Counted from the stretch's first letter, positions 15,076 through 36,230 are shown. The stretch is 36,230 nucleotides of DNA from Spirochaetales bacterium (GCA_028719825.1 JAQYLW010000034.1:1-36230); one strand, 5' to 3'. Numbers and translations are program-made. Notes: generated by a model not told the origin, from the letters alone.

Positions 15076-16206
15076 CTATTGCATAAAACCATACATGGAA
15101 TTTCTGCACATTAAAGCAAACTTTGCACATCTGAGGGATAGTTGTTCTATAACTTCCTCTGCTGTTTTATCGAATGTGAAATTACTGTATTTAACACATC
15201 CGTCCTTTATTGTTTTTATAACCGATGAAGGCAGTTCTTCTTTTCCTATGCATGATGAAAGATACACAAAGCACTCATCATTGTTTTCAAGGTGATCTAT
15301 TGCAAGTTTTCGGGCGTATAAATTAAGGGAAACATCAGCCTTGCTTGCATCCTTTGTCCAAACGCTGCCGCCTCCTATAGGAGATGTAACGGAATAGAAA
15401 TCGCACGCAAGTTTTCTTCCCGTGATTCCGCAGTCGGCAACTGACGAATGGGTTGTGTATTTGCCGGTTCCGTTAATTACATATTTTGCACCCTGTTCAC
15501 CTATCTGAGCTTTAATAAACGATACAAGATGTTCTTCGGATCCCGAAAGAACAGGCACGGCAGCTATAACCGTGTTTGTTTTTCCGTTTTCATCAAGGGT
15601 AATCTGCGTTTTTATATCAAGACCCAAAACAGGAGCGTCCGGGAGAGCATAGAACTTTTTATATTCCTCCGTATTATGTCTGAAAAACTTGCTTTCTGGA
15701 CTATATCTGTACAGTGCAAGTTCGTACAAAACGGAGCAAAGGCGTTTTGCCCTCATATGAGCAAGGGAGAGAAATTTATCAGAGCGTGATGCATAACCCA
15801 CAAATACTCCCTGATCTCCCCAGCCTGTAACTTCCTTGTTGCACTGTCTGTTCGGACTGCTGACTCCCATTGAAATATCCTCTGATTGCTCGCCGATAAG
15901 GTTGATAACATTGATTTTATCCACCTCTATTGCGTTATCCTTCCATAAATCACCGTAGCTCTTTGAATAGCCTATTTCGCTCAAAGCTGATATAACAAAT
16001 TCCTTAATCTGCTTATCATCAAAGTGCTTTGTGCTTTTAACCTCTCCGCCTAAAACAACCGTGTTCCCTTTTATAAGAACCTCTACGGCATATCGCGTAA
16101 AAGGATCATAGGATAAATAGCGATCTAAAACATAGCTTGAAATGTAATCTGCACACTTATCGGGGTGCCCTAACGAAACTGCTTCTGCAGTACTTTGAAA
16201 ACTCAT
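15076..16206 (-). CDS. metK: Divergent S-adenosylmethionine synthetase
   Basis: SEAVSLGHPDKCADYIS-type N-terminus, LGGEV, GEQSEDISMGV, GWGDQGVFVGYA, DIKTQIT, DCGITGRKL, GGGSVWTKDASKAD. Confidence 0.88.
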   Translation of the reverse strand: MSFQSTAEAVSLGHPDKCADYISSYVLDRYLSYDPFTRYAVEVLIKGNTVVLGGEVKSTKHFDDKQIKEFVISALSEIGYSKSYGDLWKDNAIEVDKINVINLIGEQSEDISMGVSSPNRQCNKEVTGWGDQGVFVGYASRSDKFLSLAHMRAKRLCSVLYELALYRYSPESKFFRHNTEEYKKFYALPDAPVLGLDIKTQITLDENGKTNTVIAAVPVLSGSEEHLVSFIKAQIGEQGAKYVINGTGKYTTHSSVADCGITGRKLACDFYSVTSPIGGGSVWTKDASKADVSLNLYARKLAIDHLENNDECFVYLSSCIGKEELPSSVIKTIKDGCVKYSNFTFDKTAEEVIEQLSLRCAKFALMCRNSMYGFMQ

Positions 16207-16696: not shown

Positions 16697-17578
16697 CTAT
16701 TTCTCCTTTACTGCAACACGCAATTTCGAACTGCGTGATGACGGATTATTGGTCAATTCTTCATCTGACGGCACAACAGGCTTTTTTGTAAGTATGCTAA
16801 TCTTACCGTCTGCATTAAGAGAACGAAATGTCCATTTGGCTATTCCGTCCTCGAGTGAATGAAACGAAATTACCTCTATTCTTCCGTTTACATTCAAAAT
16901 TTCATAAGCGCTTAAAAGAGCACTTTGAAATCTTTTTAATTCATCGTTTACCTCTATTCTCAGAGCCTGAAATGATTTTGTTGCCACATCGGTTTTGCTT
17001 TTCGCTCTTTGTGAAGCGGAAAAACATCCCGAAATTATTTCGTGCAACTCGCTGCTCGAATTAATTTTTTTGTTCTTTCTGTACTTTACTATTGCCCCGG
17101 CTATACGGCGCGAATTCTTCTCGCCGCCGAATTTATAAAGAATATCCCGAAGCGATTCTTCACTGTAGGTGTTAACAACCGTATATGCGCTTTTTGAAGA
17201 ATTCTCATCAAGACGCATATCGAGTTTTTCGTCCGTAAACGAAAACCCTCTTTGTGCTTCTTTGAAATGGTACATACAAAGTCCCAAATCAAAAAGGATG
17301 AGATCTGGTTGTTCTCCTTTGTAGGATGAAAGGAACTCATCACTCCATGCATGAACGCTTTTAAATCTGTCCTTAAAAGGAAAGAGGCGTTCATTTGCCC
17401 TCTCTATCATTTTTTCATCAGCATCCACACCTATGATTTTTAACTGCGGATACTTATTCAAGAAAGAGAACGTGTGCCCTCCTTCTCCTAAATTCATATC
17501 AAACACAAGGCGCGCATTATCCGCACCAGATAACTCAAGAACCTCATTCAACAATACCGATTTATGAATTGTCGTCAT
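16697..17578 (-). CDS. rsmH: 16S rRNA (cytosine-1402-N4)-methyltransferase
   Basis: HKSVLLNEVLEL, DMNLGEGGHTFSFL, LFDLGLCMYHF, RGFSFTDEKLDMRLD, QALRIEVNDEL, VISFHSLED. Confidence 0.97.
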   Translation of the reverse strand: MTTIHKSVLLNEVLELSGADNARLVFDMNLGEGGHTFSFLNKYPQLKIIGVDADEKMIERANERLFPFKDRFKSVHAWSDEFLSSYKGEQPDLILFDLGLCMYHFKEAQRGFSFTDEKLDMRLDENSSKSAYTVVNTYSEESLRDILYKFGGEKNSRRIAGAIVKYRKNKKINSSSELHEIISGCFSASQRAKSKTDVATKSFQALRIEVNDELKRFQSALLSAYEILNVNGRIEVISFHSLEDGIAKWTFRSLNADGKISILTKKPVVPSDEELTNNPSSRSSKLRVAVKEK

Positions 17579-18042
17579 TTTTTGACTGCCACCGGCATTG
17601 CCTGTTTTACGGCATTCTCTATTTCCGCAGGGTCATCTGCTTTTGCTATATATGACTCATATAGCGCCTTGTTCCATATCTCTATTCTGTTCATCATACC
17701 CACAACCATTATTTCGCTTTTCAACTCAAGGGAAGCAAAAGCCCTAAGGTTTGCAGATATCATGATTCGTCCTGCTTTATCAAACTGTACTTCCGTTGCC
17801 GGTGCTACAACATGCATCTGCAAAAGCTGCCATGCCGGGTCGAAAGATTTTTCTCCATCGTCCAGCAAGGTGTTTGCCAGTTTTTCAAAATTCTCGGGTT
17901 TTAGAACCTGCAAACACCTGCGTGAATCAGACGACTTTGTTACGACGAGTGTTGTTGTGTCAAATTGACTTTTCAGCCTTGAGGGGATCAATAAACGACC
18001 TTTTTCATCAAGAGACACACTGTGCTCGCCTGTTAATAACAC
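17575..18042 (-). CDS. mraZ: Transcriptional regulator MraZ
   Basis: LLTGEHSVSLDEKGRLLIPSRLKSQF...FDKAGRIMISANLRAFASL. Confidence 0.95.
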   Translation of the reverse strand: MLLTGEHSVSLDEKGRLLIPSRLKSQFDTTTLVVTKSSDSRRCLQVLKPENFEKLANTLLDDGEKSFDPAWQLLQMHVVAPATEVQFDKAGRIMISANLRAFASLELKSEIMVVGMMNRIEIWNKALYESYIAKADDPAEIENAVKQAMPVAVKK

Positions 18043-18330: not shown

Positions 18331-19044
18331 TTAGTGGGATGTAAGTTCGCCTACATTATAGCTTTTTATTGAAGAATCAAAGGTCTCAATTAACAGCTCT
18401 CCGTTTTCGTTTACACCTAAACATTTCCCCTCTACAATTTGGTTGTTGTAGAGGGTTTTAAGAGAGACATTACTTCCCTTGTATAAAAGAACGCTGTTAT
18501 AGTATTCAAATAATGCTCTGTTCTTGATTAACGGTTGAACTTCTCTGAGCGCATTTAAAAGTTCTGCAGCAATTTGTTCTATAGGGGGACAAGCTGAGGA
18601 AGTGTTAAACAGCGATATCGCTTTATCACTGAGTGAAGAATCAAACTTGTCAATTTTATAATTCAATCCGACCCCAACTATCAAATCACCCATCTTTGTT
18701 TGTTCGCATAGAATACCCGAACATTTCTTGTTGTTATATATCACATCATTTGGCCATTTAATACAGGTATCAATGCCCAGCTTATTTTTTATAAACATTG
18801 ATACAACTGCAGCAACAGACGGCATTACGGAAAGAATTTCTTTTTCTTTACCTCTTATGTTTCCATAGCAAAAAGAAATATATACACCACCCTGAGGAGA
18901 TTCAAAAGAACGATTTAGCCTTCCCCTGCCATTTGTTTGTGAAAAGGCAATCACGGCATCCTTTGCCTCTAATATGCCCGCGTTTGATTTTTCCTTTAAA
19001 TAGTCGTTTGTAGAACCAATCGAATCAAAATACTCTGTAGTCAT
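18331..19044 (-). CDS. birA: Biotin--[acetyl-CoA-carboxylase] ligase, no N-terminal HTH
   Basis: GSTNDYLKE, TNGRGRLNRSFESPQGGVYIS, IKWPNDVIYNNKKCSGILCE, GVGLNYKI. Confidence 0.95.
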   Translation of the reverse strand: MTTEYFDSIGSTNDYLKEKSNAGILEAKDAVIAFSQTNGRGRLNRSFESPQGGVYISFCYGNIRGKEKEILSVMPSVAAVVSMFIKNKLGIDTCIKWPNDVIYNNKKCSGILCEQTKMGDLIVGVGLNYKIDKFDSSLSDKAISLFNTSSACPPIEQIAAELLNALREVQPLIKNRALFEYYNSVLLYKGSNVSLKTLYNNQIVEGKCLGVNENGELLIETFDSSIKSYNVGELTSH

Positions 19045-19046
19045 AG

Positions 19047-22000
19047 CTATTGGATATATTTTTTATGTTCTTTTACAAAAGAGGCTGAGAGCTTTAAAAG
19101 TCGCTTAATGTCCTTTTTTTCGGCATTCGGGAAATAAACAACCAAATCCTGAAAAACAGTTTTTGGAGTGATACTCACGTTCTTGATTATTCTGTCGATA
19201 AACAAATCACCAATGAGCGCTTGTATTTCTTCGTTTGATATGTTTTCAACAAGACGTTCGTCCTGTTTTGTATATGAATGGCGGAATATGATCTCTGAAG
19301 AGCTGTTGTATATAAAGCCCTTATAGCGTGATATAAAAGGATTCTCTTTAACTATCTTTGAAATCATAGCATTAAACGCCTTAAAAGCATCCTTATTCCT
19401 TAAAGAGGAATACCACTTAACAACATATCTGGAAAACAGCCATTGCTCATTTATGGGTGCTTCATTCTTAATTACTTCAATACATTCGTCCTCCGGAGAA
19501 ATACCCTGCTTTTGAGGAGTAATGCTATAGTAATAATTAGGTTTCATTATATTAGGATATGGAATTACCGTTTTCTCACTCGTAGTTGAGCTGTTTTTAC
19601 TTCCTTTTAAAACTGCATTGGAAACAGAGGCTGATGCGCTAAGATGATCCGTATACCACTGGGATGAGAATTGTCTGATATAGCTTATGCCGCTTTGCTC
19701 TATTATATGTCGCTTTACATATTCGTTTTTATAAATTTCCTCATATGTGGGATTATATTTAAAATCAAAATCCGATACGCACAGTATCTTGGACATATCA
19801 TTTGAGATTACCGTTAGATTAATATATCCCCCGTTTTTGTTAAAGTTGTAAAATGCCTTATATCCCCTGTTTAAAAGGAACGTTGTAGCAGGAGGGAAAA
19901 CAGCTTGATTTTTTAATGTGGCATAGGAATACGAAGAAATGCTTGTTACTAATTTTGCAAACATTTTTTTACCTATTGTTTTATACTCTCCCAAACACTC
20001 CTCTTTTGAAAAAGATGAAACTATAATAATCCCTTTAGAAGCTTTTGAAAGAATGGTAGGAACAAGAATATCATCATCTATGGGAGAATCGTATTTTTTA
20101 AAATTTGTAATAGAAGATGAAAAAATCACATAGTCTGTTTTAAAAGGCGGCGCTTCCTTGTATGAGGAAATAAAAAGCTGCTCATTAGCACGTGATGATG
20201 TCAAAAAAGCTTTAAAGCGAGGAGAAGAGATAACTTTTGAATTGAGTTCATTAATAATTTCTCTGCATTGAGCACTATATGAACAAAGAACGCTTATTGA
20301 AGAATTGGGCCTTTTAATAACTATGCTCTTTACAATATCTGCAATCCTGTCTGCCTCAGAGGAGTTAACTCCTGATTGTATATCAAAAGATGCACCTGTT
20401 ACATTTTCAAATCTGATTATTTTATTCTTGTCCTCAAAGCTTTTTTCCTGAGTTAAGCATACAAATGAATCGTCGTTATATAAGTCCTCTTTGATTTTTT
20501 CAATATAAGCGTTATCCGCTTCTGTTATATAGCCATGCTTATACACTTCAAGTTTCTGTCGAGATATATCGAATAAACTGTTTAGGGACAAGGCGGAAAC
20601 ATCTGAGCGTTCTATCACCCTGTGTGTTCTGTATAAATTGAATCCATGCTCTTTTTGCCCTATTATAACAACCCTTTTGCATCGCTCTAAAACGGACAGA
20701 ACATCAGGCAGTGAAAGGGTTTCGGCATCATCGATTATAAGAACGTCAAACTTGCTTTCCGAGGGCAAAAAACGAACTGTGTCTTTTATGTTCATTATTG
20801 TGAAAGGAAAGGATGATATAAACGTTTGCATAAGACGATTTATATTACTGTCATCAAGCGAAAGGGCTTCTGTTTTATGCTTTATACACGAAACAAGCAT
20901 ATTTTTGTCAGAAGTTGAAATAGATGACAGCATTTCTTTTTGTTTGTTTTTATAAACGGCATTTATGTTTTCAACATTCTCCCTATGAAATATTGAAAGC
21001 AAGTTATCTAATGAATTGTACAAAAGATCAAACTTTGCTGAGGTAACATTTTTGATGCTGTCGTGATAGGTAATACGGCTGATGATTTTATGAAGGATAC
21101 CCTTTTTAAACACATCGGATGAGGATTTTATTAAATGCTCGTTATGCACTTTAACGGCAAACCTCAGCAATCCTAACTTACTAAGCTCATCCTCAATCTC
21201 ACTAAGAGTTGTAAGTTCGCTTTCCCCTATTGCCGTAATTCCTTCATACAGTTTCTTCATATACGTTTTACATACTGTGAAGTCACCCTGTAATGCACCA
21301 CCTACATCGGGAATAAACCTGCTTAAAAATTCTATGCGTTTTTCTGAATTTACATCATTAAAACATAAAAGATGTTTTTTGATTTGTGTAAGTTTAGTGC
21401 AAAATTCTTCCTCGCTCTCGTTTTCAGAATAAATTGCGTTTAAAACCTTACTGAGCATTTCATTGTTGCTGAAATAACACGTCTCTTTAAGAACGCGTCT
21501 ATTCGCGCTGTTTTCCAAAAGAAACTCTACGGTTTTAAGAGCCTGCCTGGCTTCTCGGCTTGATGCGATCTTTAAACCATACTTCTTGAGAGAATCCGTC
21601 TGTTTTAAGAAGTATTTTAATTCATCGTTAATTCCATTTAAACAAAGGACAATATTTTTAATATCTTCTTTTGTAAAACGTTGTTTTTTATTCTCATTAA
21701 GCCAGGGGTTGTTGATAAGCGTAATGTCTTTATTTACGTTAAGCCGTACTTTGTCGTACTTATCAAGAGTGTTGTATATAAAACGTACATCCTTTTCGTT
21801 TAATTTGTTTTTGTCAAGAAATTCCAACGGAATAAGCGGCAATTCGGATAGCTTTAAATACTCTTCAAATATATATTCAAAGGGCAGATTCAAAAAGTTA
21901 TCCTTTCTTTGCAAGGAATAAATAAGCTGTTTGTATTCATCTAATGTCTTTTTTATATTATCGGCAGTTTTTGAAACTTCGGATGAAGGAACAGAAACAT

Positions 22001-23144
22001 TGTTCTTATTTGAATCATATATGTTTTTTAGAAATCTGAGCGCCAATGCTACAAACATCTCGTTAAATTTGCCACACGGCATTAAAATCAGCCCCATAAG
22101 GCTCAGCCTGTCCAACTTCTCTTTTAATTCTATGATTGTTTTATCATATCTTGAAACATAAAGAACACTCTGATTATCCGATACTGCCTCTGCTATTAAA
22201 TTGACTATGGCCGAAGCTTTATCACATCCGGAATAGTTTTCTATAACAAAGGATTCTCCCCTTTTAACGGCAGCCATTGTCCTAAGAACATCAGGAGGGG
22301 CAAAGGTTACCTCATTCAAATTGTTCGGTATATCATCGTGGTTTTGATTGTCATTGTTTGTTAAAGAATTAAATCTATCAAGCACAGAATTTATATCTGC
22401 GTTTTCTTCCCTTGCCTCTTTATAATTGATTATATGATCGGCATACATATAGGATGTGAATACGGGGAAAACTGTCAGATTAAGAACATTAAAATCCAGC
22501 ATCACCTTTTTATACAAGGAAGAGGATTTGACAATTCCCTTAATCCTGTTTACGGCATTAACAAAACTGCCGTCTGCACAAAGTGGAAATGATACAGGCA
22601 GAACAACATTGTTTTCTTCATAGAAATATAGCCTTGCTACGGGATTTACAAAAATACAGTCTGATTGTCCTACAAGGACAAAACTGTCCTCGTCTTTTTG
22701 TTTTATTTCTACAGGGTACAGGAACAAAGGAGTTTTAATTATTTTGTTATCGGAAGTGCTATGTTCAAAACAGCCGTAAAAAACAAACATTCCGGGATTG
22801 TTATAAGTCTTTTGAATTTTAACGGAGTTTAAGAAAAGATAATCAAATGCTTCTATGGCCGATCCGGTAATGTTTATAAAACTTAGTATATCACTTGAAG
22901 CTTCAATGTTTTTCATCTGTCCGGCTTTGGCAAGGCGTTCATTTTTAAGGATAGTTTTTAGAGAGATATCAAATTTTGTTCCGTTTGCAAGCGCATATAA
23001 GAGGTCATCGGCATGAGGACTCATTATACACAATTCATTGAACTTATCTGCCTTATAGCTGAATAGCCTGTTGTTCTTTGAAAATGCGGCAAGGTCATTA
23101 TTCTGATCTTCAATAAAACTCATTAATCTCCTTAAAACACTCAA
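19047..23144 (-). CDS. DUF4011/SF1-helicase/REase/DUF3320-type multidomain protein with degenerate catalytic motifs
   Basis: N-terminal DUF4011-like (FVFYGCFEHS..TPLFLYPVEI); VLRTMAAVKRGESFVIENYSGCDKASAIVNLIAEAV at Walker A; KFDVLIIDDAETL at Walker B; C-terminal REase-like fold then DUF3320-like CIEVIKNEAPINEQWLFSRYV. Confidence 0.8.
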   Translation of the reverse strand: MSVLRRLMSFIEDQNNDLAAFSKNNRLFSYKADKFNELCIMSPHADDLLYALANGTKFDISLKTILKNERLAKAGQMKNIEASSDILSFINITGSAIEAFDYLFLNSVKIQKTYNNPGMFVFYGCFEHSTSDNKIIKTPLFLYPVEIKQKDEDSFVLVGQSDCIFVNPVARLYFYEENNVVLPVSFPLCADGSFVNAVNRIKGIVKSSSLYKKVMLDFNVLNLTVFPVFTSYMYADHIINYKEAREENADINSVLDRFNSLTNNDNQNHDDIPNNLNEVTFAPPDVLRTMAAVKRGESFVIENYSGCDKASAIVNLIAEAVSDNQSVLYVSRYDKTIIELKEKLDRLSLMGLILMPCGKFNEMFVALALRFLKNIYDSNKNNVSVPSSEVSKTADNIKKTLDEYKQLIYSLQRKDNFLNLPFEYIFEEYLKLSELPLIPLEFLDKNKLNEKDVRFIYNTLDKYDKVRLNVNKDITLINNPWLNENKKQRFTKEDIKNIVLCLNGINDELKYFLKQTDSLKKYGLKIASSREARQALKTVEFLLENSANRRVLKETCYFSNNEMLSKVLNAIYSENESEEEFCTKLTQIKKHLLCFNDVNSEKRIEFLSRFIPDVGGALQGDFTVCKTYMKKLYEGITAIGESELTTLSEIEDELSKLGLLRFAVKVHNEHLIKSSSDVFKKGILHKIISRITYHDSIKNVTSAKFDLLYNSLDNLLSIFHRENVENINAVYKNKQKEMLSSISTSDKNMLVSCIKHKTEALSLDDSNINRLMQTFISSFPFTIMNIKDTVRFLPSESKFDVLIIDDAETLSLPDVLSVLERCKRVVIIGQKEHGFNLYRTHRVIERSDVSALSLNSLFDISRQKLEVYKHGYITEADNAYIEKIKEDLYNDDSFVCLTQEKSFEDKNKIIRFENVTGASFDIQSGVNSSEADRIADIVKSIVIKRPNSSISVLCSYSAQCREIINELNSKVISSPRFKAFLTSSRANEQLFISSYKEAPPFKTDYVIFSSSITNFKKYDSPIDDDILVPTILSKASKGIIIVSSFSKEECLGEYKTIGKKMFAKLVTSISSYSYATLKNQAVFPPATTFLLNRGYKAFYNFNKNGGYINLTVISNDMSKILCVSDFDFKYNPTYEEIYKNEYVKRHIIEQSGISYIRQFSSQWYTDHLSASASVSNAVLKGSKNSSTTSEKTVIPYPNIMKPNYYYSITPQKQGISPEDECIEVIKNEAPINEQWLFSRYVVKWYSSLRNKDAFKAFNAMISKIVKENPFISRYKGFIYNSSSEIIFRHSYTKQDERLVENISNEEIQALIGDLFIDRIIKNVSITPKTVFQDLVVYFPNAEKKDIKRLLKLSASFVKEHKKYIQ

Positions 23145-23178: not shown

Positions 23179-24453
23179 CTAAAAAATGAAGAAATTTGCT
23201 CCGATATCACTTCTGTACCAAGCGCCCGGAAACAGATCTGAGAGTGAGTATAAAAAGGAATATGCCTTTCTGTTTGTTCTTTCGATACTGCTGTCCTTTA
23301 CAACAAGCGTAAACGGTCGACCACCGTTTGTATAGTATTCATTCCCCTCTTCACTTACAGCGCCGAAGAATAAGCTCATATCTTTAGAAAGGCTTTCTCT
23401 GGCATATGAAAGCATCCTTTTGTCTATATGTTCTTTACAAATTAAATCCTTATCCGGATATCCTAATGAAGCAATAACTACATCAAGAGCATAGTTTGAA
23501 TTGTCAATGTTAAACTCAACAGGCTCAAGCTTTCCCTGCATTGCTTTTTTGAGTTCTCTCACGCCATCATCCTTTACAAGAGAAAGCATTGCTGCGGCAG
23601 ATGGATCGCTAAGACGTGTTTTCATGTTGAGCAAATATACATCACCCGATGAAGTTATAAGAAGATGGAACGTCATAAATCCTTTATAGACAATTTTGTC
23701 GTTCTTCAAACCGTTTATCATCTTTTTTATAACTTCCTCTCCAACCCTGTCACGAGTGTATTTGCTCAGAGGTAAGGGTGCTAAAGCTCCCATTCCAGAT
23801 GAAAATGAGCCTTCATTGTCTTCCTTGCTTCTGTCATAATCACAGGCTATCGGCAACAAGCGGTAATTAGTACCATCTGTCAATATTGTTGCAGTTGCAG
23901 TAAGTCCTTCAATAAATTCTTCTATAAGTATAGGTGAGTTATCTATGTGGTTCTTTGCCCATTCAACTGCCCTTTCAAACGAGGAGGTATCACATCTGTC
24001 CCGTCCTCTGCCTTTTACGCATTTTAGGGCAACCATTCTGTTTTTAAACTGAGAAAGAGCGCTTTCAAGCTCTTCCATCGTATTTGCAATTTTGGCTTTT
24101 TCAAGGGTTTTGATTCCATAATCGCTTGCTCTTTTACGAAGCGTTTGAAGATTCTCATATGTATAGGCATCCCTTCCGGGACCAATTACTTCGGCTCCCA
24201 ATGCTTTGAGATCCTCGTTAATACCCTCTTCTATCAACCTTCCCGTTGAGGAAACAATCAGATCTATGTGATTTTTCTTTACACAATCTATAACAGCACT
24301 CTTGTTATCTCCCATCTGCTTTACTATGTGAGCATATTCGCTCATACCGGGATTTCCCGGATAGACAAATAACTCTTTTTCTTCTTCACTCTCACAAAGC
24401 CATTTGAGAAGAGCATGTTCTTTTGCAGTGTTTCCTAATACAAGAATTTTCAT
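23179..24453 (-). CDS. PurD-like (GAR synthetase/ATP-grasp) protein, probably diverged
   Basis: MKILVLGNTAKEHALLKWL..YPGNPGMSEY, LIEEFIEGLTATA, SFSSGMGALAP, YTNGGRPFTLVV track PurD throughout; key motifs altered (see findings). Confidence 0.85.
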   Translation of the reverse strand: MKILVLGNTAKEHALLKWLCESEEEKELFVYPGNPGMSEYAHIVKQMGDNKSAVIDCVKKNHIDLIVSSTGRLIEEGINEDLKALGAEVIGPGRDAYTYENLQTLRKRASDYGIKTLEKAKIANTMEELESALSQFKNRMVALKCVKGRGRDRCDTSSFERAVEWAKNHIDNSPILIEEFIEGLTATATILTDGTNYRLLPIACDYDRSKEDNEGSFSSGMGALAPLPLSKYTRDRVGEEVIKKMINGLKNDKIVYKGFMTFHLLITSSGDVYLLNMKTRLSDPSAAAMLSLVKDDGVRELKKAMQGKLEPVEFNIDNSNYALDVVIASLGYPDKDLICKEHIDKRMLSYARESLSKDMSLFFGAVSEEGNEYYTNGGRPFTLVVKDSSIERTNRKAYSFLYSLSDLFPGAWYRSDIGANFFIF

Positions 24454-34652: not shown

Positions 34653-36230
34653 TTAATTCTCAGCGTTTAATATATTTGCTTTTTGAATTATTTCTTCAAC
34701 TCTTTCTTCTTCGTCTGTGTTCACAAGTTCAATATTCTTATAGCATTTCATACCTGTACCTGCAGGTATAGCATGACCTATAACAACATTTTCCTTAAGA
34801 CCGCTCAACGTATCAATACTACCTGCTATTGCTGCATTAGTCAAGACCTTTGTTGTTTCCTGGAACGATGCTGCAGCTATAAACGAATTGGACAGAGAAG
34901 CCTTGGTAATTCCCTGAAGTACAGGTGTTGCAACAGCGCATTCTCCTCCCTGTTCTTCAACCCGCTTGTTTTCTTCACGGAACTTGAATTTATCAACAAG
35001 CTGATTTTGAACAAAGGTTGTATCCCCTACCTTGAGAATCCTTACCTTTCTAAGCATTTGGCGGATAATAATACCGCAGTGTTTCTCGTTTATATCTACC
35101 TTTTGCGCTCGGTATACTTTTTGAATTTGATTTACAAGGAATTCTTCAAGAGCGCTTTCACCCTGAATTTCAAGTATATCATGCGGACTTACAGGTCCGT
35201 CGCAAAGAGCTGTTGCGCTTTCAACCCTATCCTTATCACGAACAAGAATATGTTTTGTAAGAGGAATAAGATGCTTGTATCGTTTACCAAAATCGTCCTC
35301 GATATAAATAACCCTGTTTCCTCTCTCACGTCCTTCAAAATGAACAACACCGTCAGCTTTAGCAAGAACTGCAGGGGATGCGGGGCGTCTGGCCTCAACA
35401 AGCTCTTCAATTCTTGGCAGACCTGCAGTAATATCCGAGCTCTTTACCCCTTCTTTATTCAATTTCACAAGGATATCGCCTGCTTTAACTTCCTGCCCTT
35501 TGTCAACCTGAAGCACAGAGCCACCGGGGAGCAGATATGTTTGTAAAATATTGCCTTTTTTATCTTTTATGATAATAGCCGGTTCAATGTCCTTATATAC
35601 GTGTTCGCTGATCTTTCTTGTGACTTCTCCGCTTTCCTCCGAATAGTCCTCAATGAGGGTAGTTCCATCCTGTATATCGTGGAATTCTACAATACCGTCC
35701 TCTTCAACAAGCATTGGTTCACTGAACGGATCGAATGTTACAAGAGGCTCTCCCTCTTTAAGAATTGCACCGACTGAGGTTTCAAATTTACTTCCCGGAG
35801 CAATTTCTATTCTTTCACTTTCGCGTTTTACGACAAGAAGCTTGTTGTCGATAAATTTAACAACTCCGTTGGCAGTAGATAAAACCTCCTTGCCTTTTGC
35901 ATCCTTACCTATAGACGATCCTACTCTTACGGGCTCCCCTTCGGTAACGGTATACTCTTTTGCTGAAAGAGTATCCATAATTCTCAGGTAATTGATATAT
36001 GCCTTTCTTGTAAACAGTTGTGCATTATCCGATTCTCTTGTTATCAAATCACCTTGAACCTTTGTAATCAATGCATCGTGAGCAAATACAATCTTGTTCT
36101 CTTCAGCAACGGCATGAGCAACTCCTCCTTCGTGGAAGGTTCTCATGGTAAGCTGGGTTCCGGGCTGTCCGATTGACTGTGCAGCAATTATTCCCACAGC
36201 CTCACCGATATCAACAGGCCTATTGTTAGC
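34653..36230 (-). CDS. rpoC: DNA-directed RNA polymerase beta' subunit, C-terminal part (runs off window edge)
   Basis: Open to the edge: ...[84 protein letters not shown] at 36197 is internal. Confidence 0.97.

What the first reader, a model, noticed from the sequence alone, without database searches (positions are those of the whole stretch)
19047..23144. Full-length DUF4011-type helicase/nuclease homologue with every catalytic motif apparently lost
Against the remembered family consensus: Walker A GPPGTGKS reads NYSGCDKA (22215-22238); Walker B DEAS reads DDAE (near 20727-20732); motif III GDPKQLPP reads GQKEHGFN; the HYRS arginine segment reads VYKHG; the QGDERD segment reads PPFKTD; motif VI LNVAVTRAR reads VPTILSKAS (20037-20063). 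In the C-terminal REase-like region (19635-19931) GYRIDL reads GYINL and IECDG reads VSDFD. The DUF3320-like end is retained. A 4.1-kb uninterrupted ORF in a tight gene cluster argues for selection on a non-catalytic (scaffold or sensor) role rather than decay.
Basis: partly seen in the sequence, partly recalled or inferred. Interest (0 to 1): 0.85.

Follow-up and report, generated by a model that had tools for sequence, protein, structure and literature searches.

The report
Retained dead helicase-nuclease in spirochaetes
Two related small-genome spirochaetes each carry, just before the same gene, a large relative of a candidate anti-phage DNA-unwinding and DNA-cutting enzyme whose active sites have almost all been lost, yet the rest of the protein is still being conserved, so it probably does a structural or binding job instead of a catalytic one.

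Summary
Window 19047-23144 (-) encodes a 1365-aa, uninterrupted, strongly diverged member of the DUF4011 / SF1 helicase / REase family, closest to PADLOC candidate PDC-S37. A sister species (G001, CAMDZB01, 1.2 Mb) has a co-located orthologue (1036 aa, 26% identity), also upstream of birA-mraZ-rsmH and also degenerate. It is therefore neither a recent lesion nor an assembly error.

"Every motif lost" is slightly too strong. The window copy keeps the Walker A Lys and Walker B Asp, and probably an acidic residue at the REase Glu position. The sister lost that Lys but keeps ERD and the REase Asp, so some losses were independent.

Evidence for continued selection: synonymous sites are saturated while the protein still aligns over its length. 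In 91 canonical pairs the catalytic core is always better conserved than the flanks. In the dead pair that excess is gone, but the flanks remain about as conserved as between canonicals.

No other homologue read in the phylum lacks its helicase motifs, and neither genome has an intact PDC-S37.

Best reading: a retained pseudo-helicase/nuclease acting as a nucleic-acid-binding or scaffold protein. The biochemical role is inferred. Slow decay remains a serious rival.

The parts
19047..23144 (-). Degenerate PDC-S37 / DUF4011 helicase-nuclease homologue, 1365 aa (TTG start; ATG at residue 8 is an alternative start)
22635..23144 (-). DUF4011 N-terminal region (residues 1-170); 27-32% identical to the sister, canonical pairs average 31%
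22260..22634 (-). Linker between DUF4011 and Walker A (residues 171-295)
22095..22259 (-). Degenerate RecA1 first half (residues 296-350), motif I NYSGCDKA at 22215-22238 in place of GPPGTGKS (G306, K309 kept); motif Ia lost
20850..22094 (-). Variable insert within RecA1 (residues 351-765), much shorter in the sister
20595..20849 (-). Degenerate RecA1 second half (residues 766-850): motif II IIDDAET 20718-20738; motif III GQKEHGFN 20637-20660
19920..20594 (-). Degenerate RecA2 (residues 851-1075): motif IV WHYRS lost (VYKHG, 20532-20546, nearby), motif V PPFKTD 20133-20150 for QGDERD, motif VI VPTILSKAS 20037-20063 for LNVAVTRAR
19620..19919 (-). Degenerate MTES_1575-type PD-(D/E)xK region (residues 1076-1175); GYINL 19815-19829 (Asp to Asn), VSDFD 19764-19778
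19050..19619 (-). Basic linker and C-terminal DUF3320-like region (residues 1176-1365, pI 9.4); residues 1213-1365 are 27% identical to the sister, canonical pairs average 21%
18331..19044 (-). birA-like biotin ligase, 2 nt downstream; the conserved downstream partner (overlaps the orthologue's stop codon in the sister)
17575..18042 (-). mraZ, shared downstream neighbour in both species
16697..17578 (-). rsmH (mraW), shared downstream neighbour in both species

Best explanation
The ORF is a pseudo-helicase/pseudo-nuclease. It is a vertically inherited descendant, shared by at least two small-genome spirochaete species, of a PDC-S37-type DUF4011-SF1-REase protein. Shown: its ATPase/helicase motifs and most of its nuclease site are gone in both species, partly by different substitutions. 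Shown: the protein sequence is still conserved beyond synonymous saturation. Shown: only the excess conservation of the catalytic core has been lost. Inferred: it keeps the family's overall shape (DUF4011 region, two RecA-like lobes, REase-like fold, basic DUF3320-like tail) and works as a non-catalytic nucleic-acid-binding or protein-binding scaffold or sensor, perhaps as RecC and Deinococcus PriA do after losing catalysis. Which partner or substrate it binds is unknown.
For: Syntenic orthologue in G001 immediately upstream of birA-mraZ-rsmH, with a 2-nt gap in one species and an overlap in the other. The two form one clade, 100/99, with end branches about 4.9 and 4.8 against a median of 0.93. 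Motif columns are lost in both. Four-fold sites are saturated (0.29 vs 0.26 expected) while aa identity is 26%. Core/flank log-odds of identity: 91 canonical pairs 0.36 to 1.33 (median 0.88), dead pair -0.21 with 99% CI -0.65 to 0.22. Flanking identity: C-terminal region 27% in the dead pair, 21% mean in canonical pairs. Foldseek of low-confidence models still returns Upf1/Sen1/Senataxin/Dna2/Aquarius-type SF1 helicases, and the REase region keeps an alpha-beta-beta-beta-alpha-beta order. Both dead proteins have pI above 8 (8.2, 8.9), whereas all 15 canonicals are 7.0 or below. No intact PDC-S37 in either genome.
Against: Only two sequences of the dead type are known, so selection after the last motif loss cannot be timed. 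The divergence is extreme (24-27% while rsmH is 65%, metK 59%, birA 47%), which also fits relaxed constraint. The sister lost about 330 aa. The window copy keeps K309, D805 and D806, so nucleotide binding is not excluded. AlphaFold models are poor (mean pLDDT 52.9 and 50.8), and their alignments contained a canonical sequence. Some other G000 housekeeping proteins also have pI above 8, so basicity is weak evidence. No partner was identified.
Confidence: 0.68

Rival explanations
1. Slow decay: a formerly useful defence gene has been losing constraint in a shrinking genome and simply has not yet acquired a stop or frameshift; it has no present role.
For: Very fast divergence, independent loss of different motif residues in the two lineages, a large internal shortening in the sister, and genomes of only 1.15-1.2 Mb.
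Against: About 102 stops expected by composition, none seen. Four-fold sites saturated while the protein still aligns over most of its length. Uniform erosion from a canonical-like profile should leave the core above the flanks, but the dead pair shows no core excess while the flanks keep canonical-level identity.
Confidence: 0.2
2. It is still an enzyme: an ATPase or nucleotide-binding switch using atypical residues (K309, D805, D806, K1034), or a nuclease with a rearranged site.
For: The window copy keeps the Walker A Lys, the Walker B Asp and an acidic residue after it, and probably an acidic residue at the REase Glu position.
Against: The orthologue lacks the Walker A Lys, has Asn for the Walker B Glu and Asn for the REase Glu, so no alternative catalytic set is shared; WHYRS, the Gln and PP of motif III, QGD and the motif VI Arg are gone in both.
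Confidence: 0.08
3. The frame is kept open only because translation through it feeds birA downstream; the protein itself is useless.
For: The stop lies 2 nt from the birA start in the window and overlaps it in the sister.
Against: Coupling needs an open frame, not a conserved protein of over 1000 residues; amino-acid conservation exceeds synonymous conservation, and a much shorter leader would suffice.
Confidence: 0.04

Closest known systems
PDC-S37 (PADLOC candidate defence protein: DUF4011-SF1-MTES_1575)
   Same: Domain order and near full-length profile match (E=1.4e-32); same phylum carries canonical members.
   Different: About 110 bits against 834-1366; helicase motifs and most nuclease residues lost; located in a housekeeping cluster.
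Hhe / ProA (DUF4011 anti-phage proteins, NCBIfam NF042953, NF058533)
   Same: Partial profile matches (E=6.9e-12 and 1.6e-25).
   Different: 44 and 89 bits against cut-offs of 2000 and 1500; not a member.
RecC (inactivated SF1 helicase and PD-(D/E)xK-like domain in RecBCD; PMC1185551)
   Same: Precedent for a protein whose nuclease-like domain (and, from general knowledge, helicase domain) is inactive and used to hold DNA.
   Different: Different SF1 subgroup; RecC works inside an active complex, no active partner is known here.
Deinococcus radiodurans PriA pseudohelicase (PMC4504706)
   Same: Chromosomal helicase whose motifs eroded within one lineage, retained with DNA-binding activity and a partner interaction.
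   Different: SF2 PriA, no nuclease domain; shown biochemically, whereas this one is only inferred.

Membership tests
PDC-S37 / DUF4011 helicase-nuclease | DUF4011 N-terminal region | tested here: met
   PF13195 33.9 bits, cut-off 22.2; 25.4 bits in the sister
PDC-S37 / DUF4011 helicase-nuclease | Near full-length match to the PDC-S37 profile | tested here: met
   E=1.4e-32 but only 110 bits, in four stretches; hhalign 1226 columns, 99.9%
PDC-S37 / DUF4011 helicase-nuclease | Intact SF1 motifs I-VI | tested here: not met
   all 10 canonicals aligned have them
PDC-S37 / DUF4011 helicase-nuclease | Intact PD-(D/E)xK residues (IDLAV ... IECDG) | tested here: not met
   window N1109 for Asp; sister Asn for Glu
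PDC-S37 / DUF4011 helicase-nuclease | C-terminal DUF3320 domain | tested here: inconclusive
   Not called by Pfam, E=0.12 in the sister, but E1228/P1230/R1288/E1306 conserved
SF1B (Upf1-like) helicase fold | Two RecA-like lobes with Upf1-like topology | tested here: inconclusive
   Foldseek top hits Senataxin, Sen1, Upf1, Ighmbp2, Dna2 (E down to 4.7e-11), but models have pLDDT about 51-53 and low TM-scores
Hhe anti-phage protein | Score above NCBIfam equivalog cut-off | tested here: not met
   43.6 bits, cut-off 2000
RecC-type inactive partner of an active helicase-nuclease | Encoded with an active partner | tested here: not met
   No other PDC-S37 in G000 or G001 and neighbours are housekeeping genes
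RecC-type inactive partner of an active helicase-nuclease | Physically complexed to an active helicase-nuclease | not testable with these tools
   Needs pull-downs
Pseudoenzyme (works-like category) | No ATPase, helicase or nuclease activity | not testable with these tools
   Needs biochemistry

The most novel reading that the evidence does not exclude
A candidate anti-phage helicase-nuclease was stripped of both catalytic activities in a genome-reducing spirochaete lineage and recruited into a conserved birA-mraZ-rsmH locus as a housekeeping or sensing DNA-binding scaffold: a second, independent, RecC-like double pseudoenzyme.
Probability: 0.2. Interest if true: 0.72.

Novelty: new variant of a known kind. 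Interest (0 to 1): 0.52.

Why it matters
Anti-phage helicase-nucleases are usually assumed to act by catalysis. A lineage that lost both active sites yet still conserves the protein offers a natural separation-of-function case: it would show which part of the DUF4011 architecture has a value independent of ATP hydrolysis and DNA cleavage. It also warns that profile-based defence annotation can count dead proteins as systems, and that loss of motifs in reduced genomes need not mean loss of the protein.

Tried and rejected
Genome-wide erosion as the cause: the upstream PurD-like protein looked motif-poor too, but its sister-species orthologue has the same features and related genomes carry a second, similar PurD-like copy. 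MetK is divergent but 59% identical in the sister and keeps GHPDK.

Assembly artefact or recent lesion: rejected by the independent sister MAG.

A second, intact copy in the genome: none found.

More dead orthologues: none in 141 family genomes, about 395 phylum genomes or the genome collection; other hits that were read have intact motifs I and II. The IMG/VR scan gave two canonical relatives only.

dN/dS not attempted as a number because synonymous sites are saturated. PDB sequence search gave no match. No paper in the library names PDC-S37.

Full report
WHAT IS THERE. The window ORF 19047-23144 on the minus strand is a single uninterrupted frame of 1365 aa. Its sequence gives weak but consistent matches to DUF4011 (33.9 bits, above cut-off), the AAA_12 second helicase lobe and the MTES_1575 REase (both below cut-off) in the right order, and a 110-bit match to the PADLOC candidate defence protein PDC-S37 (E=1.4e-32), for which canonical relatives score 834-1366 bits. 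A profile comparison of the two dead sequences with four canonical ones aligns 1226 columns with 99.9% probability. Random sequence of this composition would hold about 102 stops in the frame.

WHICH RESIDUES ARE LOST. Motif I QGPPGTGKSQT is ENYSGCDKASA in the window and KSPKCRNSTSY in the sister. Motif II FDEASQ is IDDAET / IDNASS. Motif III GDxxQxPP is GQKEH / GDDTTYTEQ. WHYRS is lost in both. Motif V QGDERD is PPFKTD / GYLERD. Motif VI LNVxxTRA is VPTILSKA / ISTILNSA. In the REase, IDLAV is INLTV / FDLAI and IECDG is SDFDF / INFDE. The window therefore keeps the Walker A Lys and the Walker B Asp; the sister keeps the Walker B Asp, ERD and the first REase Asp but has lost the Walker A Lys and the Walker B Glu. 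Each family residue kept by one species was, by parsimony, present in their ancestor, so a part of the loss happened independently in the two lineages. At family-conserved motif columns the window keeps 10 of 49, at other conserved columns 47 of 98 (Fisher p=0.001); the sister 17 of 53 and 44 of 91 (p=0.08, not significant).

WHERE IT OCCURS. The genome is a 1.15-Mb spirochaete MAG. A species of the same GTDB genus, G001 (1.2 Mb; CAMDZB01, 'uncultured Spirochaetaceae bacterium'), carries a 1036-aa orthologue. In both, the gene lies directly before birA, mraZ and rsmH; the gap to birA is 2 nt in the window and an overlap in the sister. Upstream genes differ. A third species of the genus, G002 (2.0 Mb), has recR before birA and two canonical PDC-S37 genes elsewhere. 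No other degenerate member turned up in 141 family genomes or about 395 genomes of the phylum; the other hits read have intact motifs I and II. Neither small genome contains an intact PDC-S37. The two dead proteins form one clade (100/99) on very long branches (4.94 and 4.80, median 0.93); which canonical lineage they came from is unresolved.

IS IT UNDER SELECTION? Between the two species, four-fold degenerate sites are at chance level (0.29 observed, 0.26 expected), and nearly so in birA, mraZ, rsmH and metK. Under such divergence an unconstrained protein would be unalignable, yet the two share about 26% identity over about 1000 aligned residues. In 91 pairs of canonical proteins the catalytic core (RecA lobes and REase) is always more conserved than the flanks (log-odds 0.36 to 1.33). 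In the dead pair the value is -0.21 (99% CI -0.65 to 0.22), and a separate pairwise alignment gives -0.06 (-0.46 to 0.35). By region, the canonical means of 69% (RecA1a), 50% (RecA1b), 46% (RecA2) and 46% (REase) fall to 24, 27, 18 and 24%, while the DUF4011 region (27 vs 31%) and the C-terminal region (27 vs 21%) stay near the canonical level; the linker before Walker A does fall (20 vs 32%). Uniform decay would be expected to leave a core excess; this is an inference about expected profiles, not a fitted model.

HOW IT MIGHT WORK. The simplest reading is a pseudo-helicase/nuclease kept for its shape and binding surfaces. The C-terminal region is basic (pI 9.4), and the whole proteins are basic (8.2, 8.9) where all 15 canonicals are at or below 7.0, but several other proteins of the same genome are basic too, so this is weak. 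AlphaFold models from three to four sequences are poor (pLDDT 53 and 51), and their alignments included a canonical member. They nevertheless match Upf1, Senataxin, Sen1, Ighmbp2, Dna2 and Aquarius and the sister's model keeps the REase order of elements. Precedents are RecC, whose nuclease-like domain lacks catalytic features and serves as a hoop for single-stranded DNA (PMC1185551), and D. radiodurans PriA, which lost ATPase and unwinding but kept DNA binding and a DnaB interaction (PMC4504706). Both steps, binding and partner, are inferred here.

NOVELTY. Pseudohelicases are known; a pseudo-helicase that is also a pseudo-nuclease, derived from a candidate anti-phage protein and fixed in a housekeeping locus of two species, was not found in the literature searched, but the library is partial.

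LIMITS. Two sequences only; both from MAGs; no strain-level variation; no biochemistry. Slow decay (about 0.2) remains the main rival.

Noticed in passing
L107, L108, L109, L110 (G006, G112, G004, G015): A subgroup of longer PDC-S37-like proteins (1800-1970 aa, with N-terminal extensions) keeps all helicase motifs but reads ILLDG, VLLDG or IILDF where others read IECDG, so the nuclease Glu appears lost; L109 also has Ala for the first Asp.
   Followed up: partly
window 23179-24453 (-): PurD-like protein lacking several usual PurD residues (NTAKEHA, FSSGMGA, LLNMKTRLSDPS). Its sister-species orthologue shares these features, and other genomes of the family carry an 'AKDHA'-type PurD-like protein, in two of them beside a normal PurD.
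   Followed up: partly
window 15076-16206 (-): S-adenosylmethionine synthetase far diverged from the rest of the family (30-36% identity) but 59% identical in the sister species and with GHPDK kept.
   Followed up: partly
window 34653-36197 (-): Frame matching RNA polymerase beta' domain 5 that runs close to the window edge; looks like the C-terminal part of rpoC.
   Followed up: no
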